This document shows, piece by piece, positions 7,101 through 36,300 of a stretch of 45,447 nt of DNA. The notes below the pieces were generated by a model, which saw only the letters and a program-made list of their open reading frames with translations, was not told where the DNA came from and searched no databases. Position 1 is the stretch's first letter; the number at the start of each line of letters is the position of its first letter. A program made the position numbers and the translations under genes. The DNA comes from an uncultured Bacteroidales bacterium (lineage in GTDB: Bacteria; Bacteroidota; Bacteroidia; Bacteroidales; UBA932), in the NCBI GenBank assembly GCA_944326335.1, contig CALVDM010000019.1, positions 1 through 45,447 on the forward strand. Direction: 5' to 3'.

Positions 7101-7256
7101 AAGAGGGGTGGCCCAAAAGCCCTAACAAGTCCCACAGGGACCGCACCGGGTAGGTGCGAAATCCCCCCTAATAGGGGGTATAGGGGGTTAGGATGGGGTC
7201 AGTCTTTCGCAGAAAGACATTTGAGGGCGACACAAAATTTCTTTTGTGTCACCCTC
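7101..7256 (+). repeat. Dispersed hairpin-rich intergenic element, copy A
   Basis: First of three related intergenic elements (others at 20904-21114 and 36216-36300). It holds, in order: a short stem GTCCC/GGGAC (7129-7133 with 7137-7141); a 6-bp stem CGCACC/GGTGCG (7142-7147 with 7153-7158); CCCCC/GGGGG (7164-7168 with 7174-7178); GTCTTTC/GAAAGAC with loop GCA (7202-7218); and a long hairpin 7223-7256 (15 positions, one C-A mismatch, loop TTTC). It lies between convergent genes, after the GH110 gene and facing the 3' end of the DUF3127 gene. The last hairpin could end transcripts from both sides, although there is no strong T-run after it. Confidence 0.85.
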
Positions 7257-7289
7257 CTCCCGGCTTCTTTCTCCGGCAGTCTTTTCAGG

Positions 7290-7724
7290 TCAGAACGGTA
7301 AATCGTCTTCTACCTGATCAACGCTGCCTTCTGCCACATACCCGTGGTTCGTACTGGCTGCTTCGGCAGGATTCGGCTTGTATGTGTCGCCGGACCCTTC
7401 AACGCCAGTAGGCGCGAAACCAGTGGTGTAGTTCTCCGCAATATGGGATTCCGCCTCAATCTTCCATGCGCGCAGGTCGGTGTACCACCTGTTGTTGTAC
7501 TCCCGGCTGCTGATGTTGAAAGAGACTTTGACCTTGTCCCCGATCTGGTATTTCTCCAGATCCTTGACCTTGTCTGGCCCCCATACGCTGAGGCAGACCT
7601 GCGAAGGGTAGTTGCCCTCCTGGTATTCTATCACGAATTCCTGTTTGGACCAGTCTCCCCTTGCCGATGTCCCGCTCTGTACACCAAGTTTCCTGATGAT
7701 TTTACCTTCAATTTCCAAAGCCAT
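7290..7724 (-). CDS. DUF3127 protein with SSB-like C-terminal tip
   Basis: 144-residue protein of the DUF3127 family, widespread in Bacteroidota and usually predicted to be an OB-fold. The N-terminal 100 residues (MALEIEGKIIRKLGVQSG..., then WSKQEFVIEYQ, GDKVKVSFNISSREY, WYTDLRAWKIE) form the domain. A low-complexity Gly/Ala/Asn-rich linker follows, and the protein ends in EDDLPF. That layout (OB-like domain, flexible linker, acidic tip ending in Pro-Phe) is the layout of single-stranded-DNA-binding protein SSB, whose tip DDDIPF recruits repair proteins. A DNA-binding role is therefore an inference. It sits 8 bases after the FKBP gene, probably in one operon, and recQ is the next gene beyond. 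Confidence 0.85.
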   Translation of the reverse strand: MALEIEGKIIRKLGVQSGTSARGDWSKQEFVIEYQEGNYPSQVCLSVWGPDKVKDLEKYQIGDKVKVSFNISSREYNNRWYTDLRAWKIEAESHIAENYTTGFAPTGVEGSGDTYKPNPAEAASTNHGYVAEGSVDQVEDDLPF

Positions 7725-7732
7725 GGTTTATG

Positions 7733-8518
7733 TTATTTATTGTCTTCGGTTTTCTCTTCTTCAGCGACTTTGCCCACCTTCACGAGCTCCACGTCGAAAA
7801 TAAGGGCCGAATTTGGCTTGATGTCACCTGTTCCGCGGGCGCCGTAACCGAGTTCCGCAGGGATGAAGAGTTTTATCTTGCCGCCTTCACCGATATACTG
7901 GAGACCTTCCGTCCAGCCTTTGATTACGCGGTTCATCATCATCTTCACAGGGTCCTTCTCAGGGTCTGATGCGTCAAATTCGGTATCGTCGATGAGTTTG
8001 CCGGTGTAGTAAACATAGACAGTATCCTTCTCGCCAGGCTTCACTTCATTGCCCGGATTCTCGATTTTGTACTGGAGACCGCTTTCAGTTACGACCACGC
8101 CGTCGTTCTGTGCATTGGCTTTCAGGAATGCCTCGCTCTCGGCCTTGTTGCTCTCGGCCTCGAAGTTGTTCCTTGCGGAGAGGAACTCGTTGAACAGCCT
8201 GTTCATCTCGTCAGGGTTGATGTCGAACTGCTCGTTGAATTCCGGTGTGTTCATCCTGCCGTCGGCATTGATGAAGTCCATCATTCCCTTCTTGATTTTT
8301 GCATAGTCGAGGTCGTTGCCGAAATTGTTCGCCTTGATGAAGTATCCGAAGTTGATACCTACAAGGTAGCTTACGGAGTCGGTGAGTGATGCGCTCGGAA
8401 GAGATACCGTCACCTGCTCCCCATCCTTGTCCACTGTGATGCTTTTTGGCGAGCTTGTGCAACTTGCCATGATTGCTGCGACTACGGCAGCTGCCGAAAT
8501 GAATTTGAGTGTTTTCAT
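7733..8518 (-). CDS. FKBP-type peptidyl-prolyl isomerase lipoprotein (FkpA/Mip-like)
   Basis: 261-residue envelope chaperone that isomerises Xaa-Pro bonds. A signal peptide with the lipobox MASC gives an acylated Cys20. Residues about 40-135 are the helical N-terminal dimerisation domain (SVSYLVGINFGYFIK...), rich in Glu/Lys/Asn. From about 140 to 245 is the FKBP domain: VTESGLQYKIENPG, VYVYYTGKLIDDTEFDAS, VIKGWTEGLQYIGEGGK, FIPAELGYGARG and LIFDVELVKV. These include the Tyr, Phe/Asp, Trp and Ile positions that line the proline pocket. The tail is acidic (EEEKTEDNK). Transcribed leftwards together with the DUF3127 gene and divergent from recQ. A promoter -7 box is annotated at 8591-8598. Confidence 0.93.
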   Translation of the reverse strand: MKTLKFISAAAVVAAIMASCTSSPKSITVDKDGEQVTVSLPSASLTDSVSYLVGINFGYFIKANNFGNDLDYAKIKKGMMDFINADGRMNTPEFNEQFDINPDEMNRLFNEFLSARNNFEAESNKAESEAFLKANAQNDGVVVTESGLQYKIENPGNEVKPGEKDTVYVYYTGKLIDDTEFDASDPEKDPVKMMMNRVIKGWTEGLQYIGEGGKIKLFIPAELGYGARGTGDIKPNSALIFDVELVKVGKVAEEEKTEDNK

Positions 8519-8578
8519 TTTATCTGGAGTTATTTGTTTTTATGTCAAAACCGAAATCATGCAAATATCGTAAAATTA

Positions 8579-8610
8579 TTTGTAATAAGGCAAAATTAAT
8601 TCTAACTTAG
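8579..8610 (+). promoter_or_regulatory. Probable promoter of recQ (TTTG-N20-TAACTTAG)
   Basis: TTTG at 8579-8582, a 20-base spacer and TAACTTAG at 8603-8610 (one mismatch to TAnnTTTG). Transcription would begin near 8617, leaving a leader of about 16 bases before the recQ ATG at 8633. Confidence 0.55.
8591..8598 (-). promoter_or_regulatory. Probable promoter -7 box for the FKBP gene
   Basis: On the minus strand this reads TAATTTTG, an exact match to the Bacteroides -7 consensus TAnnTTTG. No TTTG is found at the expected -33 distance. It lies inside the recQ promoter on the other strand, so the two divergent promoters overlap. Confidence 0.5.
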
Positions 8611-8632
8611 TAAAGATTAATTCTGCGAAACT

Positions 8633-10834
8633 ATGGCGATCGACTCTAAAACACTACATTCCAGACTAAAAGAATTTTTCGGTTTCGACTCGTTCAAGGG
8701 GGATCAGGAGAAGATAATCAGGCACCTGACATCGGGCAAGGATGCGTTCGTGCTCATGCCTACCGGCGGCGGCAAGTCCCTCTGTTACCAGCTGCCTGCC
8801 CTTGTGATGGAAGGCACCGCCATAGTGATTTCCCCTCTCATTGCCCTGATGAAGAACCAGGTGGACGCAATCAGAGGATTCGTGGACGGCAACGACGGCA
8901 TTGCGCATTTCCTGAACTCATCCTTGTCCAAGGCCCAGATAAGCGAAGTGAGGGAAGACCTCCTGTCGGGAGAGACCAAGCTCCTGTATGTGGCCCCGGA
9001 GTCCCTGACCAAGGCCGAGAACATCGAGATGCTGAAGGAGATAAAAATTTCGTTCTATGCCGTGGACGAGGCCCATTGCATATCGGAGTGGGGGCATGAC
9101 TTCCGCCCCGAATACCGGAGGATAAGGGCCATCATAGAAGATATCGGCACTGCACCGATTATCGCCCTCACCGCCACGGCCACCCCTAAGGTGCAGAGCG
9201 ACATACAGAAGAATCTCGGCATCCAGGACGCGGCGGTCTTCAAGTCCTCCTTCAACAGGCCGAACCTTTACTATGAGATAAGGGACAAGTCTGACCCGAA
9301 GAGGGATATCATCAGGTTCATCAAGCAGAATCCGGGGAAGTCCGGCATAATCTACTGCCTGAGCAGGAAGAAGGTGGAGGAGCTTGCGGAGCTCCTGAAC
9401 ATAAACGGGATAAAGGCTTTGCCGTACCACGCCGGCCTCGACGCGAAGACGAGGGCGGAGAACCAGGACAGGTTCCTGATGGAGGAGATAGACGTGATTG
9501 TGGCCACGATAGCTTTCGGTATGGGCATAGACAAGCCTGACGTGCGCTTCGTCATACATTACGACATACCGAAGAGCCTTGAAGGCTATTATCAGGAGAC
9601 AGGACGTGCCGGAAGGGATGGCGGCGAAGGCAAGTGCATCGCATTCTACAGCTACAAGGACATAGTGAAGCTCGAGAAATTCATGCAGGGCAAGCCTGTG
9701 GCCGAGCAGGAAATAGGGAAACAGCTCCTGCTCGAGACAGTGGCCTATGCCGAATCGAACCAGTGCCGCAGGAAGCTCCTCATGAATTATTTCGGGGAAG
9801 ACTATCCGCAGGACAACTGCGGGGCCTGCGACAACTGCCTGAACCCCAAGCGTCAGTTTGACGGCCAGGAGGAGATGTGCCTGATAATAGAACTCGTGGA
9901 GTCAATGCCGGAGCATTTCAAGATAGAGCATCTCGCCAACATCCTCGCAGGGGAGTCGAACGCGCTGATAAAGTCGTACGAGCACGACAAGATAGAGTTT
10001 TTCGGGGCAGGGAAGGACCATTCCTTCCGTTTCTGGTGCGATGTGATCCACCAGGGGATTGTCCGCCACTTCCTCGAGAAGGACATCGAGTCATACGGAC
10101 TGATATATGTCACGGAGCAGGGCCGCGAGTTCAACCGCAAGCCTTATCCGCTCATGCTCACCGAGGAAAGGCATTTCGTGGACGGAGAAGATGACGACGA
10201 TGATCTCCCGGCAGGTGCTGCGCGGTCCGGCGGAGGCGGTGACCAGGTACTTCTCGCAATGCTGAAGGAGCTCCGGTCAGACCTCTCCAAAAAGCTGCAT
10301 CTCCAGCCGTGGATACTGTTCGGGGACCCGGCACTCGAGGACATGTCCATCACATATCCCGTGACATGCGACGAACTCAGGAACTGCCAGGGGGTTGGAG
10401 AAGGCAAGGCCAGGAAATACGGCAAGGAGTTCACCGAACTCATTGCCAAGTATGTGGAGGAGAACGGGATAGAGCGTCCTGACGACTTCGTGGTCAAGTC
10501 TGTCGCAAACTCTTCATCCGCCAACAAGCTCTTCATCATACAGGGGATAGACCGGAAACTGGCCCTTGAGGACATAGCTGCCGCAAGAAGCCTCGAGATG
10601 GATGAGCTTCTATCGGAGATAGAGTCCATAGTCGCCGCCGGGACAAGGCTGGACCTCGACTACTATATCCGTCAGACAGTGGATGATGACGTGGTGGAGG
10701 AAATCTACGATTATTTCAGGAACGAGGCAAAGTCCGATTCGGTGGAAGACGCCATGGCAGACCTCGGCATGGACTATGACGAGACGGAGGTCAGGCTTGT
10801 CAGGCTGAAATTCCTCTGCGAGGTGGCCAACTGA
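8633..10834 (+). CDS. recQ: ATP-dependent DNA helicase RecQ
   Basis: 733-residue 3'-5' DNA helicase for recombination and fork repair. Walker A is TGGGKS (residues 44-49), the DEAH box is at 145-148 and is followed by CISEWGHDFRPEY, the RecQ aromatic-rich loop. The second helicase lobe contains GIIYCLSRKKVEELA, AFGMGIDKPDVRFVIH and the motif VI stretch YYQETGRAGRDG. The zinc site of the RQC domain is formed by CRRKLL...CGACDNC (about 378-408). An HRDC domain lies at about 530-610, and an extra C-terminal helical tail to 733 is longer than in E. coli RecQ (about 610). Long RecQ proteins of this type are usual in Bacteroidales. The start is fixed by the short leader after the promoter. Confidence 0.97.
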   Translation: MAIDSKTLHSRLKEFFGFDSFKGDQEKIIRHLTSGKDAFVLMPTGGGKSLCYQLPALVMEGTAIVISPLIALMKNQVDAIRGFVDGNDGIAHFLNSSLSKAQISEVREDLLSGETKLLYVAPESLTKAENIEMLKEIKISFYAVDEAHCISEWGHDFRPEYRRIRAIIEDIGTAPIIALTATATPKVQSDIQKNLGIQDAAVFKSSFNRPNLYYEIRDKSDPKRDIIRFIKQNPGKSGIIYCLSRKKVEELAELLNINGIKALPYHAGLDAKTRAENQDRFLMEEIDVIVATIAFGMGIDKPDVRFVIHYDIPKSLEGYYQETGRAGRDGGEGKCIAFYSYKDIVKLEKFMQGKPVAEQEIGKQLLLETVAYAESNQCRRKLLMNYFGEDYPQDNCGACDNCLNPKRQFDGQEEMCLIIELVESMPEHFKIEHLANILAGESNALIKSYEHDKIEFFGAGKDHSFRFWCDVIHQGIVRHFLEKDIESYGLIYVTEQGREFNRKPYPLMLTEERHFVDGEDDDDDLPAGAARSGGGGDQVLLAMLKELRSDLSKKLHLQPWILFGDPALEDMSITYPVTCDELRNCQGVGEGKARKYGKEFTELIAKYVEENGIERPDDFVVKSVANSSSANKLFIIQGIDRKLALEDIAAARSLEMDELLSEIESIVAAGTRLDLDYYIRQTVDDDVVEEIYDYFRNEAKSDSVEDAMADLGMDYDETEVRLVRLKFLCEVAN

Positions 10835-10844
10835 GCCGGTCTTT

Positions 10845-11672
10845 TCAGATTTTTTCCATCACCGGTCGGCGGCTTTCGAAGTGCACGGCATATCTGAAGC
10901 CGCAGTCCTTTATGAACTCCGCGTACTGCCCGAACTTGTCCCCGACACGCTCGGGACAGTGGGAGTCAGACCCGAGGCTGATGTATTCTCCCCCGAGTTC
11001 CCTGAACCGCAGGAGTATATTCCTGTCAAGTTCAGGCGTGCGGCCGTTGTAGTCCTGATATGTCTTGGTGTTTATTTCAAGGGCTTTCCCGTTTTCCGCA
11101 AGATATTCCAGTATGGCGTCTGTCACGTCCGGGAAATCCCTGTAGAATATGCTGCACTGCGGATATGGTGCATATCTCGCCACATAGTCGAAATGCCCGA
11201 GGATGTCGAAATCCTGGAGCTGCGACATCTCCTCCAGGATGGTTTCGAGGTAGTGTCCGTATGCTGTCTTCCAGTCCTTGCCCTTGTAATATCCGCCCCA
11301 GAACGGGTCGGTGTCGTCCAGGTAATGCACCGAGCCTGTCACCTGGTCGAACCGGTGCTCGGACAGGAGTTTCCTGTTCCGGTCCCGGCTCTTTTCCTCG
11401 AGCCCTATCTCTATGCCCTTGAATATCCGTATCCCTGGCAGGATAGACTGTACCCTGTCTATCTCCTTCTGCTGTGCCGGGATGTCGAACTGCTCCGGAA
11501 TCAGATGTTCGTAGCTGGCCTTCATCGCAGGGACGAAGAAGTCGCAGTGGTCCGTGAAGCACAGGCCGGCGAGCCCGCATTCCAGTGCCGCCCTTGCGGA
11601 CGATTCCACTGATGCATTCTTCCCGTCGAAAGAGAACTGGCTGTGGTTGTGGTTGTCGTAAAGTCCTGTCAT
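10845..11672 (-). CDS. PHP-domain histidinol-phosphatase-like phosphoesterase
   Basis: 275-residue metal-dependent phosphatase of the PHP superfamily, HisK/HisJ group, which removes phosphate from histidinol phosphate. Metal-binding motifs are HNH at residues 8-10, TDHCDF at 40-45, GSVHYLDD, GHFDYVARY and the C-terminal SLGSDSHCPERVG. No other his genes are nearby. The gene starts 11 bases after the stop of the formate-THF ligase gene, so it is probably the second gene of that operon, and its natural substrate may differ. It converges with recQ, with only 10 bases between the stops. Confidence 0.85.
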   Translation of the reverse strand: MTGLYDNHNHSQFSFDGKNASVESSARAALECGLAGLCFTDHCDFFVPAMKASYEHLIPEQFDIPAQQKEIDRVQSILPGIRIFKGIEIGLEEKSRDRNRKLLSEHRFDQVTGSVHYLDDTDPFWGGYYKGKDWKTAYGHYLETILEEMSQLQDFDILGHFDYVARYAPYPQCSIFYRDFPDVTDAILEYLAENGKALEINTKTYQDYNGRTPELDRNILLRFRELGGEYISLGSDSHCPERVGDKFGQYAEFIKDCGFRYAVHFESRRPVMEKI

Positions 11673-11683
11673 GGCGCGAATTT

Positions 11684-13360
11684 TCAGCTCAAACCGTCTA
11701 TCTGGCCGTCCACTATGTCTATCTTGAGCGCCTGGGGCGACTTCGGAAGGCCAGGCATCCTTATTATGTCTCCGGCTATTGCAACCGTCATCCCGGCACC
11801 AGAGTTTATCACGATGTCGTTGATTTCAAAATCGAAGCCTTCAGGGGCGCCGTATCTTTTAGGGTCCTGGGAGAAGGAATACTGTGTCTTGGCTATGCAG
11901 ACCGGATACCGGTCCATGCCCGCCGCCTTTATCCGCTCGAGTTTCTTCAGACTGCGGTTGCTGAATGAAACGGAGCCTGCCCCGTAGATTCCCTTAGCGA
12001 CGGCGGTTATCTTCTCCGCGGTGCCGGCCTCGTCCGGATATGTGAAAACGACTGGCCCGGACGGGTATTTCTCTATGATGTCAACCACCTTCGACGCGAG
12101 TTCCACCGCACCATCGCCTCCGCGTGCGTATGCATCGTTGACTGCGAAATGGACTCCTGTCTGCCTGCAGTGTTCCTCGACAAGGGCAATTTCCTCCTGC
12201 GTGTCGGATGCGAACCTGTTGAGGACCACGAGCACCGTCTGCCCGAATCCCTTCATGTTCCTGACATGCCTGTCGAGGTTGGCGAACCCTTTCCTCACCC
12301 CTTCCGCATCCGGCAGCGTGATTTTCTCCAGAGGCACGTCTCCATGCATCTTGAGCCCCTGCAGGGTAGCCACTATCACCGTCAGTTTGGGGCAGAGCCC
12401 GCTCTTGCGGCATTTTATGTTGAAAAATTTCTCGGCTCCGAGGTCTGCACCGAAGCCTGCCTCGGTTATGGTGTAGTCTCCGAAAGTCATCGCCTCCCTG
12501 GTGGCTGTTACAGAGTTGCAGCCGTGCGCGATGTTTGCGAAAGGTCCGCCGTGGACTATCGCCGGTGTGCCTTCGGTGGTCTGCACGAGATTCGGCTTTA
12601 TGGCATCGGCCAGGAGGGCTGCGATGGCCCCTGATACGCCGAGGTCGTTGACAGTGAAAGGCTTGTCGTCGAATGTCCAGCCGAGAGTGATGTTCCCGAT
12701 TCTCCTTTTCACGTCCTCGATATCCGTGGCCAGACACAATATGGCCATTATCTCAGAGGCGGGGGTTATGTCGAATCCGGATTCCTGCGGCAGGCCGTTC
12801 GTCCTCGGTCCGAGTCCCGTGACTATATTCCTGAGAGACCTGTCGTTGACGTCGAGGACCCTTTTCCACACGATTTCCTTCAAGGCGAAACCTTCTTGCT
12901 GGTGCTGGTAGAGATAGTTGTCGAGCAGGGCCGCTATCATGTTGTGTGCGGAAGTGACCGCGTGGAAGTCTCCGGTGAAGTGGAGGTTTATCTTCTCCAT
13001 CGGGAGCACCTGGGCATATCCTCCGCCGGCAGCTCCGCCCTTCATTCCGAAGCAGGGCCCGAGGGAAGGTTCCCGCAGTGCGACGACCGCCTTTTTCCCT
13101 ATTTTCGAAAGCCCGAGGGCAAGACCTATCGAGGCGGTTGTCTTGCCTATGCCGGCCTTTGTCGCGGTTATCGCTGTGACAAGTATCAGATTGCTTTTCC
13201 TTGCTCTCTCTTCGTCTATCAGCTCCACTGGAATTTTGGCCATGTAGCGGCCGTACTGTTCGATTTCATTTACTGGAATTCCGATTTCCGAAGCGACATC
13301 GGTGATTTCGCGCATTTTTATGCTTCTCGCTATTTCAATGTCGGATTTGTGTGGTTTCAT
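11684..13360 (-). CDS. fhs: Formate--tetrahydrofolate ligase
   Basis: 558-residue enzyme that makes 10-formyl-THF from formate, THF and ATP, feeding purine and formyl-methionine synthesis. The full-length family pattern is present: a P-loop variant KAGIGKTT (the Bacteroidota form of the usual PxGEGKTT), then [93 protein letters not shown] and [16 protein letters not shown]. It is followed by the PHP phosphatase gene on the same strand. A good promoter lies upstream, shared back to back with the DUF308 gene. Confidence 0.97.
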
Positions 13361-13396
13361 AATTAAAAAATAAGCAGGCCGGAGCCCGAAGACGCG

Positions 13397-13429
13397 CGAA
13401 ATTAGTAAAATTATTCTTAATTTTGCAAA
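13397..13429 (-). promoter_or_regulatory. Probable promoter of fhs (TTTG-N21-TAATTTCG)
   Basis: Minus strand: TTTG at 13426-13429, 21-base spacer, TAATTTCG at 13397-13404 (one mismatch). Start of transcription would be near 13390, about 30 bases before the fhs ATG. Confidence 0.55.
13418..13425 (+). promoter_or_regulatory. Probable -7 box for the DUF308-dnaG-metG-murB-murA run
   Basis: TAATTTTG matches TAnnTTTG exactly and would start transcription near 13432, 24 bases before the ATG at 13456. No TTTG at -33. It lies within the spacer of the fhs promoter on the other strand. Confidence 0.45.
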
Positions 13430-13455
13430 ATTGCATACCTTAAAGACAAATCGTC

Positions 13456-14097: not shown

Positions 14098-14100
14098 CAG

Positions 14101-16086: not shown

Positions 16087-16091
16087 AGTAT

Positions 16092-20903: not shown

Positions 20904-21114
20904 AAAAGAGGCCGACTCAAAAGCCCTAACAAGTCCCGCAGGGACCGAGCCGGAGGCTCGAAGCGCCCCTAATAGGTCGCGAACGTTTTCACGAGAATGT
21001 CCTGTGGACATTCGAGAGTGAGCAGATAGACAATAGTCTACGGGGGTTGAGAGGGGTCAGCCTTTCGCAGAAAGACATTTGAGGGTGACACAAAATTCCT
21101 TTTGGGTCACCCTC
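20904..21114 (+). repeat. Dispersed hairpin-rich intergenic element, copy B
   Basis: Same order as copy A at 7101-7256. GTCCC/GGGAC (20933-20937 with 20941-20945); a 6-bp stem CGAGCC/GGCTCG (20946-20951 with 20955-20960) in place of CGCACC/GGTGCG; then an extra segment with two stems not present in copy A (GAATGTCC/GGACATTC at 20995-21013 and TAGAC/GTCTA at 21027-21040); the GCA-loop hairpin at 21062-21074; and the long terminal hairpin at 21081-21114 (one A-G mismatch). It lies between convergent murA and the ATPase gene, 27 bases from the ATPase stop. Confidence 0.85.
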
Positions 21115-21140
21115 ATATTGAAATTCAGATTAAGTATGTG

Positions 21141-25250: not shown

Positions 25251-25258
25251 TACTTTTG
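25251..25258 (+). promoter_or_regulatory. Probable -7 box for dnaX-lptB
   Basis: TACTTTTG matches TAnnTTTG. Transcription would start near 25265, giving a leader of about 42 bases before dnaX. The divergent -7 box is only 13 bases away, so the two promoters probably compete. Confidence 0.5.
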
Positions 25259-25306
25259 TAAGATAACGGGAAACTGTCTGCAGATGGTTTCCTTTACCCG
25301 GTAAAT

Positions 25307-27118: not shown

Positions 27119-27136
27119 CAAAACAGATGTTGCAAA

Positions 27137-27877: not shown

Positions 27878-27908
27878 CGCATCCCGGACTCCGGACAGAG
27901 GGTACAGA

Positions 27909-27947
27909 AAAAAAGTGTGGAAGGCAAACCGCTTTCCACACTTTTTT
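27909..27947. terminator. Bidirectional Rho-independent terminator between lptB and efp
   Basis: Perfect 14-bp stem (27909-27922 with 27934-27947), core GTGTGGAA/TTCCACAC flanked by A6 on one side and T6 on the other, loop of 11 bases. The A and T runs make it work in both directions, which suits the convergent lptB and efp genes. Confidence 0.92.
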
Positions 27948-27983
27948 CGATGTGACATCCTGCTGCCGCGCAGGCAGCTGACA

Positions 27984-28550: not shown

Positions 28551-28588
28551 ATTTGTGTTTTTTAATGATTTTCCTGGTTTTGAGGGTG

Positions 28589-28620
28589 CAAAAATATAAA
28601 AATGAAACGTTTCCGCCAAA
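28589..28620 (-). promoter_or_regulatory. Promoter of efp (TTTG-N20-TATTTTTG)
   Basis: Minus strand: TTTG at 28617-28620, 20-base spacer, TATTTTTG at 28589-28596. Both elements match the Bacteroides consensus without a mismatch. The leader to the efp ATG is about 33 bases. Confidence 0.75.
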
Positions 28621-28648
28621 TTTTTGTCCGCAGAGGCTGTTGCGGCGG

Positions 28649-29593: not shown

Positions 29594-29604
29594 ATTGCCA
29601 TGTT

Positions 29605-30303
29605 TTAATCCGATGCCCCGGGAAGCCTCGAGACGATATCCCTTATCCACACCATCTGGTCGTCCGGAGTCATGTGCGAGTTGTCGAGCACCACGGCGTC
29701 CGGAGCCTTGGCGAGAGGGGACACTTTCCTGTGGGAGTCGATGTAGTCCCTTTCCCTGACATTTTCGAGCACGTCCTCGAATTTCACGTCCTCGCCTTTC
29801 CCGATCATCTCCTTCATCCTTCTCATGGCGCGGACTTCAGGGTCGGCCGTCATGAATATCTTCAGCTCCGCATCCGGGAAGACGGTGGTGCCTATGTCCC
29901 TGCCGTCTATCACTACACGCTTCCTGCTCCCGAGCTCCCTGAGCTTCCTGTCCACATACCCGCGCACACAAGGTACTGCAGAGACCGGACTAACCTTTCT
30001 GGACACCGCAAGGGAGCGGATTTCCTTCTCGATGCATCGTTCCCCCATGTACGTCAGCGAGCCGTCCTTTCCTGCCTCGAAATGCAGGTCCAGCCCCGGA
30101 AGCGCGTCCGCAAGCCTTTTCTCGTCCACCGTGTTGTTGCTGTCTATCATCCCGTTCTCTATTGCGAACAGGGTTATGCCCCGGTAGAGAGCCCCGGAAT
30201 CCAGATACAGGAATCCTGCTTCCCTGGCAATGCGTTTCGCGAAGGAACTCTTCCCCGTGGAGGAATATCCGTCTATGGCTATTATGATGTCAGGTATATG
30301 CAT
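29605..30303 (-). CDS. cmk: Cytidylate kinase
   Basis: 232-residue kinase that phosphorylates CMP and dCMP. The start at 30303 (MHIPDIIIAIDGYSSTGKSS) puts the P-loop GYSSTGKSS at residues 12-20, as expected. The longer in-frame start lies across the promoter. Other family stretches are GFLYLDSGALYRGIT, VVIDGRDIGTTVFPDAELKIFM and RRMKEMIGKGEDV, with RDYIDSHRKVSPLAKAPDAVVLDN. It is followed by ispH, an arrangement common in Bacteroidota. Confidence 0.96.
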   Translation of the reverse strand: MHIPDIIIAIDGYSSTGKSSFAKRIAREAGFLYLDSGALYRGITLFAIENGMIDSNNTVDEKRLADALPGLDLHFEAGKDGSLTYMGERCIEKEIRSLAVSRKVSPVSAVPCVRGYVDRKLRELGSRKRVVIDGRDIGTTVFPDAELKIFMTADPEVRAMRRMKEMIGKGEDVKFEDVLENVRERDYIDSHRKVSPLAKAPDAVVLDNSHMTPDDQMVWIRDIVSRLPGASD

Positions 30304-30336
30304 CGGTGCACTCGGATGGTCAGTTTTCAAGACAGG

Positions 30337-30344
30337 CAAAATTA
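30337..30344 (-). promoter_or_regulatory. Probable -7 box for cmk-ispH
   Basis: Minus strand TAATTTTG, exact TAnnTTTG match, 34 bases before the cmk ATG. A TTTC 21 bases further up is a weak -33 candidate. Confidence 0.5.
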
Positions 30345-30373
30345 CAAAAAATTTCTGAAGTGATTGAAAAAGT

Positions 30374-30399
30374 CCGATATTTGTATCGGCAGTCTGCCG
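30374..30399. promoter_or_regulatory. Two overlapping palindromes ahead of the response regulator gene
   Basis: CCGATA/TATCGG with a TTTG centre at 30374-30389, directly overlapped by CGGCAG/CTGCCG with a single central T at 30387-30399. They sit 18-43 bases before the ATG at 30417 and upstream of the divergent cmk promoter. They could be operator sites for both genes or, if transcribed, two alternative RNA hairpins. Confidence 0.5.
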
Positions 30400-30416
30400 T
30401 TTGAAATTTCAGAATC

Positions 30417-31565
30417 ATGAAGATACTTGTCATAGACGACGAAAGGTCGATAAGGAATTCCCTCAAGGAGATATTGCTCGATGAAGGATATGAGGTGGAT
30501 GTCGCCGAGGATGGCGTCCAGGGTTGTGAAATGGCTGAGAAAGAGAAGTACAGCGTCATATTCTGCGACATAAAGATGCCCAAGATGGACGGGGTGGAAG
30601 TCCTCGAGAAGCTCGAGGCGGCGGGCATAGACTCCGCCGTTGTCATGATTTCCGGCCACGGGGACATAGACACTGCCGTGGAGTGCATAAAGAAAGGCGC
30701 ATTCGACTTCATCCAGAAGCCTCTCGACCTGAACCGCATCTTCATCACCATCAAGAACGCCACCGACAAGGTATCTCTCGTGAAGGAGACCAGAATCCTC
30801 AAGAAGAAGGTGTACGGGCAGGAGATGATAGGCGAATCCGAGCCGATGCAGCACATCCGGGACATGATAGACAAGGTGGCCCCGACCGATGCGAGGGTGC
30901 TCATCATAGGTGCCAACGGAACCGGAAAGGAACTTGTGGCCAGAAGCCTGCATCAGAAGAGCGCCCGCTCATCCATGCCTTACGTGGAGGTGAACTGCGC
31001 CGCAATACCGTCCGAACTTATAGAAAGCGAGCTTTTCGGGCATGAGAAGGGAGCCTTCACATCCGCCATAAAGCAGCACAAGGGCAAGTTCGAGCAGGCC
31101 GACGGCGGCACGCTTTTCCTTGACGAGATAGGCGATATGAGCCTTGCCGCCCAGGCGAAGGTCCTGAGGGTGCTCCAGGAGAAGAAACTCTCGAGAGTGG
31201 GCAGCGACAAGGATATCCTCGTGGATGTAAGGGTGCTGGCCGCTACGAACAAGAATCTGAAGGAAGAGATTGCAAAAGGCAATTTCAGGGAAGACCTCTA
31301 CCACAGGCTTAGTGTGATTGTGATAAATGTCCCGAAACTCGACGAGAGGAAGACCGACATCCCTCTGCTTGTGGATTATTTCATAGACCAGATATGCAGC
31401 GAGACAGGGATGATGCGCAGGAAAGTGGAGCCGGATGCGTTGAAGCTGCTCGTGGACAAGTCCTGGTCCGGGAACATCCGTGAACTCAGGAATGTGGTCG
31501 AGAGGCTGCTGATTCTCTCCGGAGACAGCATCACCGCACAGGATGTCCGCAACTACGTCTATTGA
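30417..31565 (+). CDS. Sigma-54-type response regulator lacking the DNA-binding domain
   Basis: 382-residue NtrC-family activator. The receiver domain has the acidic pair in VIDDE, phospho-acceptor D51 (FCDIKMPKMDG) and K101. The AAA+ domain has Walker A GANGTGKE (165-172), a sigma-54 contact loop GAFTSA (212-217, consensus GAFTGA), Walker B GTLFLDEIGDM (231-241), arginine-finger region REDLYHRLSV (291-300) and sensor II GNIRELRN (352-359). The protein ends 23 residues later at DVRNYVY, so the C-terminal Fis-type helix-turn-helix present in most NtrC proteins (total about 450-470) is absent. Some natural activators, such as Helicobacter FlgR, also lack it and act from solution. The stop abuts the stop of the NtrY-like kinase on the opposite strand, its likely partner. 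Confidence 0.93.
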   Translation: MKILVIDDERSIRNSLKEILLDEGYEVDVAEDGVQGCEMAEKEKYSVIFCDIKMPKMDGVEVLEKLEAAGIDSAVVMISGHGDIDTAVECIKKGAFDFIQKPLDLNRIFITIKNATDKVSLVKETRILKKKVYGQEMIGESEPMQHIRDMIDKVAPTDARVLIIGANGTGKELVARSLHQKSARSSMPYVEVNCAAIPSELIESELFGHEKGAFTSAIKQHKGKFEQADGGTLFLDEIGDMSLAAQAKVLRVLQEKKLSRVGSDKDILVDVRVLAATNKNLKEEIAKGNFREDLYHRLSVIVINVPKLDERKTDIPLLVDYFIDQICSETGMMRRKVEPDALKLLVDKSWSGNIRELRNVVERLLILSGDSITAQDVRNYVY

Positions 31566-34500
31566 TTACTGGCTGCTCTGCCTGGGCAGCCTTACCGTGA
31601 AGCAGGCCCCGTACAGGTTGTAAGACTTCCGGTAGAGTATTTCCCCGTTGCACTTCTCCACAATGTTGCGGCAGATGGCAAGTCCGAGTCCGGTGCCGCC
31701 GCTCTTTGTGGTGAAATTAGGGGTGAAGAGCCTGCTCCTGTTCTCCTCGCTCACTCCAGGGCCGTTGTCTTCGAACACCACGTCGTAGTATCCGTCCTTG
31801 GTGCTGTTCCTCAGGCATATCAGGATTTCGCCTGTCTTCACCGGCTGTCCGTTCTCAAGAGCCTGTTTCTGCTGTATCTCTATAGCCTGTATGGCATTTG
31901 TCAGCAGGTTCACGAACACGCGTATCAGCTGCGGCTTCGGTGCCATGACGTATGCCTCCGGCATCCCGAGGTATGATATGTTTATGTTGTCCTTGTTGTC
32001 GAAGATTACGAGCTGGTCCCTGAGCGTGGCGTCGAGGTCTAGCAGCACAGGCTCCTCGCTGTACAGCTTGGCGAATGTCGAGAACTCGTTGGCCGTCTCA
32101 GTGAGGATGTCGATGTGTTCCAGTATCACGGAAGCCACCTTGTCGAATTTCTCCTCCCACTTCGGGTCGTTCTTCTGCTTCAGGCGCATGAGCCTCTGAA
32201 TCTCCAGTTTGATAGGGGTGAGCGGGTTCTTTATCTCATGGGCCACCTGCCTTGCCATCTCGCTCCATGCCTTGTCCCTCTCGGCCTGGGCGAGCTTCCT
32301 TGCGCTCTCGGACAGGTCGGTCACCATCCTGTTATAGGCATTCACAAGTGTCGAAATCTCGTCGTCCCTGTCGTATTTGATGTAGTCGAGCGAATGAATG
32401 TCCGTCGACGACATCTTCTTGCCTATCTCCGTCACAGGCTTGAATATGGCGTTCACAAGCGTGGTGCTCAGGACGATGGTCGCGACAAGCAGTATTATGA
32501 ATACGTTGAATATTAGCGCGCTGTAGAAGAAGGCGTCGTGCCTGAGCACGTAGTTCTGCCCTATGTACGGCGAGTTGAGGATTGCCACCATCACGCCCTC
32601 TTCATTGAATATCGGGGCATACAGCGAATAGAACCTGTGGTCCGCCACTTTCTCCCTGCAGATGTAGAACCGCTGGTTCTTGACCCTGATGTTGTAGTAG
32701 GCCTGCTGGTTCATCCTCGACCCGAGTATCATCTTCTCGAACACTTCCGGTGTGGTGGAGCGGAAAACCTTGCCCTGTGGAGTGTAGAGCGTGAGATCCG
32801 ACCTTGTCGTCGTGCTTATGGCCTCTATCGAAGCCATCATGTCGGGAGTATTCATGTCCTGCCAAGACCTCGCATATTTCGCCCGCGACTCTATGAGCCG
32901 CTGCAGGGTGTTTATCTTGTCGGTCATGAGGTTGTACGTGTTGGTGGAGTTCCTCTTGTAGACGAAGGCCACGCTTGCGCTGGTCATGACAATGAGGGTC
33001 AGGAACAGCGACAGAGAAAGCACGGAATTGATTCTCGACCGGTAGTAGTTCTTCGGGGATGCCTGCCTCCTGTCGCTTCGCCAGAACACCACGAGATACA
33101 GGAGACCGTATATCAGTATCAGCAGGTACGAGAAGTTTATCAGGTAGGTGAGCCATCCTCTTATCGGCCGTGAGGTGATTATCACCTCGTTGTCCGATAT
33201 CCTGTTTACGAAGTGTGTGTACTTGTTCTCCCTGAAATGCGTCAGCCCCTTGTTGTTTATCCTGTCTTTCAGCCCTGAATCGAGCACGGCAGGGAAAGCA
33301 TAGTTGCCCCGGTATTTCGTGAGCTTCCCGAACATGAACCTGGCATAGGAATAGAACGGCGGCAAATCCACCTGGTCCGGCTTCCGGCTGCCCTTGAAGA
33401 TGCTCATGTAGCCGTTTTCCCCGAGATGCGTCTTCTCCTCTATCTCGAGGAACATGTGCACTACCCCTGATGTCCTTGAATAATAGATGAATGACCCGAG
33501 ATAGGATGCGTTCCCGAATTCGTCGGATACGAACCGGAATCTCGAGTTCTGCGCCAGCGGCACGCCTCCGATGAATTTCCTGCCGAAATAATCCAGGCAC
33601 GGGGCTTCCTCACCGTGAGAGTCCCTGTGGCCTGCATTGTCCCGGCAGAGTGTGACAGTGACCGAATAGTCCTGTGATATGCGGTAGAGATAGTTCTCGT
33701 TCAGCCTGTTCAATATTATGAGGTCGCTCCTGTCAAGCTCCGAAAGCGGCGCCACCATCGGGTCCGTGGCTATCGCATCCTCTATGGACCTGAGCTGGAT
33801 TTCAAGCGAGAGATCCCTGTCCACGGCGAGCCGGCTGGTGAGCACCCCTATCTTGTCCTGCTCCTTCCTGAATCCGAGCACTCCTGTCATGACGGTCATG
33901 TAGAGTGCGCAGATTGCTGAGAAGACGATGAAGCATTTCTTTGTCATCAGGTTGTACCTCCACCCTGTCAGCTCCCTGACCACCGGTCTGAGCATCTGGA
34001 GCAGAAGCAGCATGCAGAACAGGATGGCCGTGTATGAAATGTAGACTGCCATGCTGTAGACGGAGAGGTTGAACCATTGGTACAGCTCCAGGGTGATGTT
34101 CGAGTTCATCGTCAGGCTCACGATGGATACATGCACATATACTGCCGTGCAGACTATGGTGGCGATTATGCCTGTGGCGTAGAGGGCCATGCGTCCCTTC
34201 CTCCGGCTCTTGAGCATCCGTTCCATGAACTGTTTGCGGCAGATGTAGACGCATATCAGATAGCTGAACACGAGGCTGTTCAGGATGAACAGCGCCCCGA
34301 ACGAGAACAGCACCGACCCTCCGGCATAGATTTCCGGGGAGAATATGGGAAATACGTTGCGCAACTGCAGCCCCCAGCTGTAAGCCACGGCGGCGATTCC
34401 TGTTATCGCTGCCACAGTGACCGTGAAGTTCCTTATGGTCGGATGCGCCCTCAGATACAGTATCACCGACACGAGCAGGGATATCAGGGCAAGCCACCTG

Positions 34501-35177
34501 AGCAGCGCGTTCATCGGGAAGGGGATGTCCCTGTTGGTCTCGGAGATGATTTTGAACAGCGGTTCGCCGTTTATGGTTACAGGCACTCCTCCGGTGTGGT
34601 TTATGGCCATCACCACGTATTTCCTCGGCAGTTTCAGTGCAGGGTTCACCCCGGATTCGGAATTTTTCCTGTTGGCAAGGAGAGTGTTCTGTATCTCGAG
34701 CCCGTACACGGCCTTGCGGCCCATATTGTCGGACTTGTTCCCCATTATGTACCACTTGGAGCCGATGTTCATGTAACTAATTCCCTGCGGAATCGTGGCC
34801 AGGGGGGAGGACAGGCCCTGCCTGAGGTTGGACAGCTTCTGGAGCACGACCCGCGTGCTTATGTCGTCGTTGTTTATAGGGAACTGGTTGCACCACGACT
34901 TCAGCGTGTCATAGGAGTAGCTGTATATGACCATGTCCGGCGGAAGCTTCTCCAGCTCCACCCACACGTTGCAGTCAGGGTCCATGGCTTTGTCCACATA
35001 TCTGTCAAGGAGCCTGAGACGTTTCTCGACCCTCTTGCCGAGATTCTCGGCCGCCTTCTCCGCGCTCTCCGAATTGATTTTCAGAGACACGGACAATGTG
35101 AACAGGACCAGGGCGAGGCCGAGAAATATCTTCCAGCCGTCCCTTATCCAGTCTATGTGCCATCTTTTCCCTTTCAT
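31566..35177 (-). CDS. Giant NtrY-like membrane sensor histidine kinase
   Basis: 1203-residue sensor kinase. An N-terminal TM helix (about 14-32) precedes a first extracytoplasmic domain. A block of about six TM helices follows (about 225-460), then a second extracytoplasmic domain, a TM near 690 and one near 725, a third sensor domain, and a TM near 915 leading to a HAMP segment (FKPVTEIGKKMSSTDIHSLD). The H-box is QVAHEIKNPLTPIK with phospho-accepting H980. The ATPase domain has LLTNAIQAIE (N box), FEDNGPGV (G1) and GGTGLGLAIC (G2). HEIKNPLTPIK is the NtrY-type H-box, which pairs with sigma-54 regulators. The stop codon is immediately adjacent to that of the response regulator on the other strand. 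It begins 6 bases after rlmH. The stimulus cannot be inferred. Confidence 0.93.
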   Translation of the reverse strand: MKGKRWHIDWIRDGWKIFLGLALVLFTLSVSLKINSESAEKAAENLGKRVEKRLRLLDRYVDKAMDPDCNVWVELEKLPPDMVIYSYSYDTLKSWCNQFPINNDDISTRVVLQKLSNLRQGLSSPLATIPQGISYMNIGSKWYIMGNKSDNMGRKAVYGLEIQNTLLANRKNSESGVNPALKLPRKYVVMAINHTGGVPVTINGEPLFKIISETNRDIPFPMNALLRWLALISLLVSVILYLRAHPTIRNFTVTVAAITGIAAVAYSWGLQLRNVFPIFSPEIYAGGSVLFSFGALFILNSLVFSYLICVYICRKQFMERMLKSRRKGRMALYATGIIATIVCTAVYVHVSIVSLTMNSNITLELYQWFNLSVYSMAVYISYTAILFCMLLLLQMLRPVVRELTGWRYNLMTKKCFIVFSAICALYMTVMTGVLGFRKEQDKIGVLTSRLAVDRDLSLEIQLRSIEDAIATDPMVAPLSELDRSDLIILNRLNENYLYRISQDYSVTVTLCRDNAGHRDSHGEEAPCLDYFGRKFIGGVPLAQNSRFRFVSDEFGNASYLGSFIYYSRTSGVVHMFLEIEEKTHLGENGYMSIFKGSRKPDQVDLPPFYSYARFMFGKLTKYRGNYAFPAVLDSGLKDRINNKGLTHFRENKYTHFVNRISDNEVIITSRPIRGWLTYLINFSYLLILIYGLLYLVVFWRSDRRQASPKNYYRSRINSVLSLSLFLTLIVMTSASVAFVYKRNSTNTYNLMTDKINTLQRLIESRAKYARSWQDMNTPDMMASIEAISTTTRSDLTLYTPQGKVFRSTTPEVFEKMILGSRMNQQAYYNIRVKNQRFYICREKVADHRFYSLYAPIFNEEGVMVAILNSPYIGQNYVLRHDAFFYSALIFNVFIILLVATIVLSTTLVNAIFKPVTEIGKKMSSTDIHSLDYIKYDRDDEISTLVNAYNRMVTDLSESARKLAQAERDKAWSEMARQVAHEIKNPLTPIKLEIQRLMRLKQKNDPKWEEKFDKVASVILEHIDILTETANEFSTFAKLYSEEPVLLDLDATLRDQLVIFDNKDNINISYLGMPEAYVMAPKPQLIRVFVNLLTNAIQAIEIQQKQALENGQPVKTGEILICLRNSTKDGYYDVVFEDNGPGVSEENRSRLFTPNFTTKSGGTGLGLAICRNIVEKCNGEILYRKSYNLYGACFTVRLPRQSSQ

Positions 35178-35183
35178 TGTGCG

Positions 35184-35657
35184 CTACTCGTGGTGATACT
35201 GCTCTCCTCTGAGGATTGTAAATGCTCGGTACAGCTGCTCAAGGAATATCACCCTTACCATCTGGTGCGGGAATGTCATCTTTGACAGTGAGATTCTTTC
35301 GTCGGCCCTCGCGTAGACGGCTTCGGAAAACCCGTAGGCCCCGCCAATCACGAACACCATGTCGCCCGACGAATGCGAAATCCTCTTCCCGAGCCTGGCC
35401 GCCCACGCCGAGGATGAGAATTCCATGCCTTTCTCGTCGAGCAGGACCACATAGTCCCCTACTGAAATGTTCTTCAGTATGGCTTCCCCTTCCTTTGCCT
35501 TCAGCAAATCCTTCCCGTACGAAGCGGCGTTCCTGATGTCCGGAATCTCGACGATGGAGAAGTTCACGTAATGCGACAGCCTGGAGACATACACCTCCAT
35601 GCCGGACCGTACCCAGCCGGTATCCGTCTTTCCTGTCACTATCAATCTGATTCTCAT
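35184..35657 (-). CDS. rlmH: 23S rRNA (pseudouridine1915-N3)-methyltransferase RlmH
   Basis: 157-residue SPOUT-family methyltransferase that modifies pseudouridine 1915 in helix 69 of 23S rRNA. The start at 35657 (MRIRLIVTGKT) gives the usual length. The SAM-binding knot is VFVIGGAYGFSEAVYARA and the end is SLSKMTFPHQMVRVIFLEQL then YRAFTILRGEQYHHE, the conserved RlmH terminus. It is the first gene of a two-gene unit with the giant kinase, an unusual partner for an rRNA enzyme that is probably due to simple read-through. Confidence 0.96.
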   Translation of the reverse strand: MRIRLIVTGKTDTGWVRSGMEVYVSRLSHYVNFSIVEIPDIRNAASYGKDLLKAKEGEAILKNISVGDYVVLLDEKGMEFSSSAWAARLGKRISHSSGDMVFVIGGAYGFSEAVYARADERISLSKMTFPHQMVRVIFLEQLYRAFTILRGEQYHHE

Positions 35658-35684
35658 GTCTGTCCGGATGTCGATGCCATCGCA

Positions 35685-35716
35685 CAAATATACTTACGTG
35701 GCTCGGATTTTGCAAC
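35685..35716 (-). promoter_or_regulatory. Probable promoter of rlmH and the NtrY-like kinase
   Basis: Minus strand: GTTG at 35713-35716 (one mismatch to TTTG), 20-base spacer, TATATTTG at 35685-35692 (exact -7 match). The ATG follows 27 bases later. Confidence 0.6.
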
Positions 35717-35741
35717 AACAGCCTGCCGATATTTTTTTCCG

Positions 35742-36149
35742 ATGAACAATCTTGTCAAAATATTCGCTCTGGCCCCTGTAATGCTTGCGGGCTTCTGCAC
35801 CGGCTCGGCGGCGCAGGATTTCGATGTGTTCACACCGATTGCGAAATATATCAGGATAGGGGATGCGGACAAGCTTTCCGCATGGTTTGCCGACAACCTC
35901 GAGGTGGCTGTAATATCCAAGGTGACCAACGATTCGAGCCGCAGCCAGGCGAGGCAGATAGTGAAATCGTTCTTCAGCGCGTACAGTCCGAGCACGTTCA
36001 AGATAACGCACCAGGCTTCGGATTCCAACATGAAATATGCCCTTGGGGTGCTGAATGCGGGAGGCGAGAGATTCCTTGTCACGATATTCGTCAATTTCAA
36101 GGGGGATTCATTCTATATACAGCAACTGAAGATAGAACGGCTCGAATAG
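35742..36149 (+). CDS. DUF4783 secreted protein
   Basis: 135-residue protein with a signal peptide (residues 1-24, ending GSAAQDFDVF). I chose the ATG at 35742 because the longer frame upstream overlaps rlmH in antisense. The mature part (IAKYIRIGDADKLSAWFADNLEVAV, KSFFSAYSPSTFKITHQ, RFLVTIFVNFKGDSFYIQQLKIERLE) matches DUF4783, a small NTF2-like family found in Bacteroidota, usually beside rlmH as here. Predicted periplasmic. Function unknown. A sigma-54 promoter-like site begins 2 bases after its stop and points the same way. Confidence 0.85.
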   Translation: MNNLVKIFALAPVMLAGFCTGSAAQDFDVFTPIAKYIRIGDADKLSAWFADNLEVAVISKVTNDSSRSQARQIVKSFFSAYSPSTFKITHQASDSNMKYALGVLNAGGERFLVTIFVNFKGDSFYIQQLKIERLE

Positions 36150-36151
36150 GT

Positions 36152-36168
36152 TTGGCACACCTTTTGCA
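36152..36168 (+). promoter_or_regulatory. Sigma-54 promoter-like site
   Basis: TTGGCAC at 36152-36158 and TTGCA at 36164-36168. GG and GC are 12 bases apart, the strict -24/-12 spacing, and only one base (A for G after TGGCAC) departs from TGGCACG-N4-TTGCA. Predicted transcription start near 36178-36179. No protein gene begins on this strand before 39703. Confidence 0.65.
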
Positions 36169-36177
36169 AAATCTTAT

Positions 36178-36258
36178 AACCGGTTAGTTTAGTTGTTAAT
36201 AATAGGGTTATAGTTCAAGAGGAGGTGACCAAATTTTGGTCACCTCCTCTTGTCTTTC
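36178..36258 (+). ncRNA. Candidate sigma-54-dependent small RNA
   Basis: Inferred transcript of about 75-80 bases from the sigma-54-like site to the end of a perfect 18-bp hairpin (36216-36233 with 36235-36252, single-base centre) followed by TCTTTC. The 5' part is AT-rich and unstructured apart from a possible TATAACC/GGTTATA pairing (36175-36181 with 36206-36212). No open frame with a start codon is seen in it. Existence is inference. Confidence 0.4.
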
Positions 36259-36300
36259 TGCGAAAGACTGGCCTGTCTTAACCCCCTGCGCCCCTCTTGA
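36216..36300 (-). repeat. Dispersed hairpin-rich intergenic element, copy C (shortened, inverted)
   Basis: Reads on the minus strand. It keeps the G-rich segment (GGGGGTTAAGAC), the GTCTTTC-GCA-GAAAGAC hairpin (36252-36268) and the long terminal hairpin (36216-36252), here perfectly paired with an arm related to, but different from, that of copies A and B (GAGGAGGTGACC versus GAGGGTGACAC). The 5' stems of copies A and B are missing. It lies between the convergent DUF4783 and der genes, and the hairpin would stop transcripts on the + strand. Confidence 0.75.

What the first reader, a model, noticed from the sequence alone, without database searches (positions are those of the whole stretch)
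7101..36300. A three-copy dispersed structured element, always between convergent genes
Copies at 7101-7256, 20904-21114 and (inverted, shortened) 36216-36300 share a core (TTTCGCAGAAAGACA in all; CCCTAACAAGTCCC in A and B) and the same order of hairpins. All three lie between convergent genes. I know of no named family that matches; it behaves like a REP/BIME or small MITE-like element, or a mobile bidirectional terminator. No transposase or REP-associated transposase gene was found in the window, so any mover acts in trans.
Basis: partly seen in the sequence, partly recalled or inferred. Interest (0 to 1): 0.7.

Follow-up and report, generated by a model that had tools for sequence, protein, structure and literature searches.

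The report
Hairpin-nested repeat family in Cryptobacteroides
The three look-alike stretches belong to a scattered family of small folded DNA repeats in bacteria of the genus Cryptobacteroides that sit beside long mirror-image sequences, mostly just behind genes, and whose means of spreading is not yet known.

Summary
Confirmed and extended. The window copies belong to a dispersed family: a covariance model finds 23 hits in this draft genome and none in 58 of 61 same-genus genomes, but 24-38 in three others. The body (about 85-125 nt, more with nested modules) is a string of covarying hairpins: 21 of 32 pairs change on both sides, 0 of 500 shuffles match.

Most bodies are followed by a long palindrome (18 of 26 in low-copy genomes, 38 of 70 in high-copy). 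Eleven of those 18 are site-specific; some run into host genes. At eight sites the palindrome's left arm recurs before the body; at five of them this is a tandem [body+arm] array or remnant. A copy in lpxB (2 genomes), absent from 23 orthologs, shows insertion.

Not always convergent: of 51 good copies with both neighbours, 28 convergent, 22 tandem, 1 divergent; background 9/38/20.

Y1, reverse-transcriptase and intact IS110 families were not found in the five high-copy carriers. Closest kinds: BOX/RUP/SPRITE, MITEs, Rickettsia palindromic elements. Spread by fold-back template switching is my inference.

The parts
7103..7119 (+). copy A, left arm (GAGGGGTGGCCCAAAAG), related to the arms of the right-hand palindrome
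   Evidence: sequence; alignment A1 of 14 copies
7120..7189 (+). copy A, body: P2 (7129-7141), P3 (7142-7158), P4 (7163-7178) and closing strand GGGGGTT
   Evidence: folding, consensus structure, covariation over 75 distinct rows
7202..7218 (+). copy A, hairpin P6 GTCTTTC-GCA-GAAAGAC
   Evidence: all 7 P6 pairs have changes on both sides in the alignment
7223..7256 (.). copy A, right-hand palindrome (internal arm, loop, right arm)
   Evidence: 14 pairs, loop 4; terminator-like on - strand
20908..20923 (+). copy B, left arm GAGGCCGACTCAAAAG
20924..21076 (+). copy B, body P2-P3-P4-P5-P6
   Evidence: 128 bits
20977..21025 (+). module M nested in P4 of copy B; the same module occurs in a second, MITE-like family (type II)
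21081..21114 (.). copy B, right-hand palindrome
   Evidence: which gives 21077-21118 with flanking pairs
36252..36300 (-). copy C, 5'-truncated body (GGGGGTTAAGA tail and P6) with left-arm-like remnant TTCAAGAGG
   Evidence: (19 bits)
36216..36252 (.). copy C, palindrome CAAGAGGAGGTGACCAAA/TTTGGTCACCTCCTCTTG
   Evidence: 17 pairs

Best explanation
A family of small interspersed structured DNA repeats. SHOWN: a covarying hairpin body (B) is scattered over the chromosomes of a minority of Cryptobacteroides species. Most bodies lie directly upstream of a long palindrome (arm A, loop, arm A'). At some low-copy sites the palindrome is site-specific and A' is host sequence (inside lpxB; the end of a PEP-utilising-enzyme gene, ppdK-like; 11 nt into a tRNA-Gln; a dnaK gene end). 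The unit [body + its arm] can occur in tandem. In high-copy genomes a standard GAGGGTGACC-type palindrome accompanies the body. Good copies survive mostly behind gene 3' ends and on either strand. INFERRED: B spreads by a process that starts at hairpins: a strand end folds back and copies its own flank (making arm A), jumps to a B copy elsewhere and copies it from its 3' end, then rejoins; tandem units follow by slippage or recombination between arms. No dedicated enzyme was found among three families tested. At gene ends the hairpins are tolerated and sometimes serve as terminators. Confidence that this is a real mobile small-repeat family with this anatomy: about 0.85. Confidence in the fold-back route: about 0.3 (lowered after one search showed that five of eight duplicated arms belong to tandem arrays or remnants).
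For: Copies. Structure. Palindrome (score at least 10) downstream of B in 18 of 26 low-copy and 38 of 70 high-copy copies, upstream in 2 of 26 and 6 of 70, in 4 of 600 random 100-nt windows. Arm repeated before the body, exact shared stretch: L131 21, L150 24, L143 23 (36 with one mismatch), L298 30, L142 31, L300 38, L290 46, L183 48 nt; the first three have no body tail upstream. Insertion: body in lpxB (PF02684) of G384 and G178, in none of 23 other same-genus orthologs fetched; [arm+body] unit in G384 111 nt, in frame. PEP-utilising-enzyme gene end: body and palindrome in G068; no body in 29 orthologs fetched, palindrome score 8 or less in 28 and 11 in one. At lpxB the new arm matches the coding arm in each species although the arms differ. 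Palindrome overlaps tRNA-Gln in L142. Gene context. 5'-truncated copies with intact 3' ends: copy C, L017, L251. Y1, RT and intact IS110 not found in five high-copy genomes.
Against: Near-identical copies at unlinked sites in G041 look like an efficient transposition burst, which rare template switching would not easily give. In L142, L183, L298 and L300 a body 3' tail lies upstream of the left arm, and L290 holds two bodies, so their repeated arms come from tandem [body+arm] units rather than from the insertion step. One lpxB ortholog without B (G032) has its own 11-bp palindrome at the same place, so palindromes may precede B. Site-specific copies L134, L138, L151, L159, L178 and L296 have a right palindrome but no left arm by my reading. 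In high-copy genomes the left arm matches its own internal arm no better than those of other copies, apart from tandem arrays. Eight of 26 low-copy bodies scored no strong palindrome (a few of these are inner tandem members or mis-set ends). An unknown transposase, or one on a missing contig (G000 is 90% complete), is not excluded.
Confidence: 0.45

Rival explanations
1. An ordinary non-autonomous transposon (MITE-like) moved in trans by an unrecognised transposase that prefers hairpins; where the arm is duplicated, the two strands were cut at the loop and at the foot of the arm.
For: Terminal inverted repeats GAGGGTGACCCAAAAG/CTTTTGGGTCACCCTC and near-identical copies in G041; duplicated stretches of L131, L150 and L143 end in or near the loop; IS elements that target palindromes exist (PMC1525189, passages).
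Against: No flanking target duplication seen outside the inverted repeats in G041 by reading; duplicated arms vary in length; Y1 and IS110 families not found or broken in high-copy carriers; other transposase families were not tested.
Confidence: 0.35
2. A retroposed RNA: a B transcript is copied from its 3' end at a nicked target, giving 5' truncations and target duplications.
For: 5'-truncated copies share the 3' end (copy C, L017, L251); duplications of variable length.
Against: No reverse transcriptase (PF00078) found in any of the five high-copy genomes, while 4 of 5 non-carriers searched have one. No transcript evidence.
Confidence: 0.08
3. Not mobile now: a selected bidirectional terminator or structured RNA, duplicated occasionally by recombination.
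For: 3'-end bias; some copies adjoin tRNA 3' ends; covariation; three sites are shared, with the same genes on both sides, between two genomes.
Against: No strand preference relative to the neighbouring gene (11:11); only 17 of 49 have a T-run; a copy lies inside lpxB in frame; patchy across species (3 of 61).
Confidence: 0.1

Closest known systems
BOX, RUP and SPRITE repeats of Streptococcus pneumoniae (PMC3049150, passages)
   Same: Small, structured, modular; found inserted in one another; over-represented between convergent genes; SPRITE is terminator-like.
   Different: Different phylum, no sequence link shown; here the body adjoins palindromes that can be made of host flank. RUP's ends are linked to an IS (recalled).
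BrickBuilt MITE of Porphyromonas gingivalis (PMC4596501, abstract and passages)
   Same: Bacteroidales (recalled), intergenic, repeat-rich, apparent target duplications of unequal length.
   Different: BrickBuilt is a 23-nt minisatellite with leader and tail; the passages describe no hairpin body or long palindromic arm.
REP/BIME and CGTC-tagged palindromes (PMC3733652, abstract start and passages)
   Same: Palindromic repeats; CGTC repeats also lack a dedicated transposase.
   Different: REPs are 20-40 bp stem-loops with a GTAG or CGTC tag; here a multi-hairpin unit of about 120-210 nt; no RAYT found in 10 of 11 carriers.
Rickettsia palindromic elements (PMC10969869, passages)
   Same: About 150 bp, palindromic, can insert in frame into genes, as at lpxB.
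   Different: RPEs are known from many genic insertions; this family is mainly behind genes, and its palindrome can be made of host flank.
Quasipalindrome template-switch mutation (PMC8794818 and PMC7202029, search listing only)
   Same: Would create and correct hairpin arms, as at lpxB.
   Different: I know of no case that carries a dispersed repeat to new sites (recalled, not searched further).

Membership tests
MITE | terminal inverted repeats | tested here: met
   GAGGGTGACCCAAAAG/CTTTTGGGTCACCCTC in G041 copies; diverged in G000
MITE | short target-site duplication outside the inverted repeats | tested here: not met
   no direct repeat seen flanking the G041 copies by reading; low-copy sites show repeated arms of 21 bp or more instead
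MITE | partner transposase with the same ends | tested here: inconclusive
   none found; only the Y1, RT and IS110 families were searched
REP/BIME with RAYT | RAYT (PF01797) in the genome | tested here: not met
   0 matches in G000, G041, G052 and in 7 of 8 further carriers, G068 being the exception; matches in 5 of 7 non-carriers, 4 over the cut-off
REP/BIME with RAYT | 20-40 bp stem-loop tagged GTAG | tested here: not met
   unit of about 120-210 nt with 4-6 hairpins
CGTC-tagged repeats | CGTC at one end of a short stem-loop | tested here: inconclusive
   P6 read backwards begins CGTC in many copies but TGTC in the window; GTC is part of the stem
BOX/RUP/SPRITE | sequence homology | not tested
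   no direct comparison made
Any Rfam family | gathering score | tested here: not met
   0 matches in the window; permissive scans of three copies gave only matches far below gathering scores, best E 0.028
Rickettsia palindromic element | in-frame insertion in protein genes as a common habitat | tested here: not met
   clear genic copies only in lpxB of two genomes; most other copies are intergenic
Retroelement | reverse transcriptase in the host | tested here: not met
   0 of 5 high-copy carriers, all drafts
Phage or plasmid borne element | present on phages or plasmids | tested here: not met
   copy B has no blastn match at 1e-5 in phages or plasmids; one exact pattern has no match in viral contigs

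The most novel reading that the evidence does not exclude
A repeat that spreads without its own or a borrowed transposase: host polymerases stalled at a hairpin fold back, copy the flank into a new palindrome arm, switch template onto a structured repeat elsewhere and copy it in, so that each new copy makes the hairpin that favours the next event and further modules nest in its own loops.
Probability: 0.2. Interest if true: 0.82.

Novelty: new variant of a known kind. Interest (0 to 1): 0.55.

Why it matters
Small bacterial repeats are common, but how they multiply is seldom known. This family offers filled sites, empty orthologous sites, tandem arrays, truncated copies and nested modules in one genus, together with an arm that tracks the neighbouring coding sequence. 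That makes the question 'transposase or template switching?' testable. It can explain some contig breaks in Cryptobacteroides drafts, warns that covariation in such repeats may come from template-switch correction rather than from RNA function, and shows a structured repeat tolerated in frame inside an lpxB gene.

Tried and rejected
Known RNA family: Rfam at gathering and permissive thresholds gave nothing credible. Phage or plasmid passenger: no match. RAYT, IS110 or reverse transcriptase as mover: not found or broken in the high-copy carriers. Integron attC: set aside from memory of its RYYYAAC/GTTRRRY boxes; no call. Link to 23S rRNA: the Hoylesella match, which I take to be 23S by reading, is a 19-base pattern match expected about twice by chance in a collection of that size (my arithmetic). 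Insertion into ordinary terminators was my first model; weakened because most sample hairpins have other sequences and because palindromes run into coding or tRNA sequence. Solo GAGG-type hairpins without body do exist. Arm duplication as a general step of insertion was my second model; cut down. Concerted evolution against independent insertion at shared sites is unresolved: two shared sites measured are less alike (0.754, 0.789) than the mean between those genomes (0.831, 0.845), the lpxB pair slightly more (0.878 against 0.853, n = 4).

Rows dropped. Searches gave 53 and 87 hits; I left out two weak ones (L080 1383-1499, L229 1202-1262) and used 138. Of these 44 had a contig edge on one side and 1 was an edge hit inside a gene. 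The headline context count uses the 76 hits of at least 60 bits, of which 25 are edges; tandem units count separately. Weaker hits: 40-60 bits 7 convergent, 8 tandem, 7 divergent, 8 edges; under 40 bits 8, 7, 5, 12 edges. The covariation alignment used 69 of the 136 loci scanned, chosen by me, and was fitted to the model. Gene calls come from my own codon-score script, and the background is G000 only, while copies come from ten genomes. One search used stricter filters (more than 40 genomes), so absences there are of close relatives only; the pattern misses G052, which the model finds.
Full report
WHAT IS THERE. The three stretches are real relatives. A and B share 79 nt at 86% and 57 nt at 79%; C shares the 3' tail in inverted orientation. 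All three fold far better than shuffles (z -5.4, -5.2, -5.7). All lie between convergent genes. The window is ordinary chromosome (a SusD-like gene, RecQ-like helicase, formate-tetrahydrofolate ligase, DnaG, MetRS, MurB, a Der-like GTPase); 30 proteins were scanned and no transposase family appeared.

ORGANISM. The genome is a 2.34-Mb, 61-contig draft, 90% complete. A same-genus genome, G261, has a contig of the same length (20,823) as JADIMQ010000017.1, Candidatus Cryptobacteroides merdigallinarum, and 15 of 15 tested 200-mers of a 3.1-kb stretch of it are found exactly in that record. So the genus is Cryptobacteroides; the species of the window is not known to me.

THE FAMILY. Fourteen copies in this genome align over the unit: left arm, body with hairpins P1-P6, internal arm, loop, right arm. 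A covariance model of the body (R1) finds 23 hits in G000, 9 in G041 and 1 in G052, and none in the other 58 of 61 same-genus genomes, under stricter filters. A pattern of 15 fixed bases finds 24 of 400 same-genus genomes; some of these are chance matches in coding sequence, for example L135 and L153. Copy number is bursty: R1 gives 27 hits in G114, 38 in G261 and 24 in G347, but 5, 4 and 4 in G190, G106 and G178. Several contigs end inside copies (for example L040, L088, L162), so counts in drafts are probably lower bounds. None was found in phages, plasmids or viral contigs with the queries used.

STRUCTURE. On 75 distinct rows (from 69 loci chosen by me), 94.0% of cells pair, 21 of 32 pairs have changes on both sides, and 0 of 500 shuffles reach any of the five measures; slid controls fall to 36-63% paired. 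The alignment was fitted to the model, which favours it, and related rows inflate such counts. P6 (7 of 7 pairs), P3 (4 of 6) and P1 (4 of 4) carry most double changes; P2 is nearly invariant (2 of 5). Loop triplets of P2 are GNA in 118 of 127 copies, of P6-like hairpins in 88 of 97, and of P3 in 14 of the 18 that my strict expression caught; part of the P2 set was fetched with a pattern that fixes the third base A. I recall that GNA triloops make unusually stable DNA mini-hairpins; the papers were seen only as a listing.

PALINDROME NEXT TO MOST BODIES. In genomes with few copies, 18 of 26 bodies have a palindrome of score at least 10 within 100 nt downstream and 2 of 26 upstream; in high-copy genomes 38 of 70 and 6 of 70; random windows 4 of 600. 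Of the 18, eleven have arms of their own (L142, L151, L183, L143, L300, L296, L150, L298, L290, L131, L178) and seven have arms that recur (GAGGGTGAC- or GGGGATGAAC-like). Site-specific ones lie inside lpxB, at the end of a PEP-utilising-enzyme gene that I read as ppdK, 11 nt into a tRNA-Gln, and at a dnaK gene end. At L131, L150, L143, L142, L183, L298, L300 and L290 an exact stretch of 21-48 nt that includes arm sequence stands on both sides of a body. In L142, L183, L298 and L300 the tail of another body lies upstream of the left arm, and L290 has two bodies, so these are arrays of [body+arm] units; L131, L150 and L143 show no tail upstream. G000 contig 36 holds two full bodies in tandem with a 124-bp period plus a partial one. 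Six other site-specific copies lack the left arm by my reading.

INSERTION SHOWN. In G384 the [arm+body] unit of 111 nt lies in frame inside lpxB (444-aa open frame, PF02684). In G178 the body lies at the same place, without the left arm. The 23 other same-genus orthologs fetched, two of them with unrelated extra sequence there (L262, L271), have no body; 24 of 61 genomes in that search gave no match and say nothing. A strong palindrome (score 16-17) is present only in the two body-bearing genes; the next best is 11 in G032, the rest 8 or less. The right arm is coding sequence conserved in the family (..LVCHYKDGA..), and the left arm is its reverse complement in each species, although the arms differ between the two. 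The PEP-utilising-enzyme gene end shows the same: body and palindrome in G068; no body in the 29 orthologs fetched, with palindrome scores of 8 or less in 28 and 11 in one (L331).

GENE CONTEXT. Hits of at least 60 bits: 28 convergent, 22 tandem, 1 divergent, 25 with a contig edge. Background intergenic gaps of at least 60 bp without the element in the window plus 255 kb of G000: 9, 38, 20. Fisher p = 2e-6 for convergent and 5e-5 for divergent. In tandem contexts the copy is nearer the 3' end in 18 of 22, and body strand relative to the gene is 11:11. That argues against a role as the gene's own leader or a one-strand RNA. Only 17 of 49 palindromes are followed by a T-run, so a terminator role is likely for some copies, not for all. 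Weaker hits show little bias.

WHO MOVES IT. Y1 transposase was not found in G000, G041, G052, G114, G261, G347, G384, G178, G110 and G244 and was found in G068. Reverse transcriptase was found in none of the five high-copy genomes and in 4 of 5 non-carriers. IS110 gave one match over the cut-off, a piece with a stop in G261, and weak ones below it in G384 and G013. The high-copy genomes are drafts of 84-97% completeness. Other transposases were not searched.

MECHANISM. At lpxB the arm joined to the body's 3' end is a reverse copy of host flank, and body copies can be truncated at the 5' side (copy C, L017, L251). One picture that covers this is fold-back priming on the flank, then a switch to the 3' end of a body elsewhere, then rejoining; units can later multiply in tandem through their arms. 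Insertion, and a palindrome of host flank at the junction, are shown at two genes; 'fold-back first' and 'no enzyme' are inferred. A hairpin-seeking transposase would give much the same product and is the main rival.

NESTING. Module M (49 nt in copy B) sits in P4 of 5 of the 14 aligned copies and also occurs in a second repeat family with inverted ends AACGTNAGTTCGANGAAT. A different module sits in the P4 loop of G261 copies, and others near P3 and P6. Insertions into one another are reported for BOX, RUP and SPRITE (PMC3049150, passages).

LITERATURE. Eight searches on Bacteroidales with REP, MITE with Bacteroidetes, Cryptobacteroides with repeats, palindromic elements, pneumococcal repeats, RPEs, GNA loops and quasipalindromes listed no description of this family; only the top rows are shown and the library holds open-licence papers only.

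VERDICT. It is a new family of small interspersed repeats of a known general kind, with an unusual junction: a palindrome that can be made of the host's own flank.

Noticed in passing
G000 C1:136946, C3:56718, C12:76013, C15:48569 and others (L043, L046-L048): Second repeat family (type II): MITE-like, ends AACGTNAGTTCGANGAAT, with module M inside; apparent 5-bp target duplications AAGTT, ACATT and AAAAT in 3 of the 4 copies read. G052 has 84 end matches.
   Followed up: partly
L077, L079, L089-L091, L139, L160, L299: Bodies embedded in another tandem repeat family (cgcagaagccgagagcaaagcaaat...); these make up part of the weak, unbiased hits.
   Followed up: no
L262 (G021), L271 (G026), L264 (G032): The same spot of lpxB carries unrelated extra sequence or a palindrome in other species: a tolerant loop used repeatedly.
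   Followed up: no
L076/L211, L217/L227, L219/L226: Same intergenic site occupied in two genomes at 74-82% nucleotide identity of the flanks, while the copies resemble their own genome's subtype: concerted evolution or repeated insertion.
   Followed up: partly
L249 2265-2308, L252 10251-10278: Solo GAGG-type hairpins without body in intergenic stretches of G000; possible relics or ancestral terminators.
   Followed up: no
G033, G042, G044, G023, G016: Same-genus genomes in which this element was not found do carry Y1 transposase matches; their own REP-like repeats were not examined.
   Followed up: no
window 27909-27947: Strong bidirectional terminator-like hairpin between convergent genes, unrelated in sequence to the element.
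   Followed up: yes
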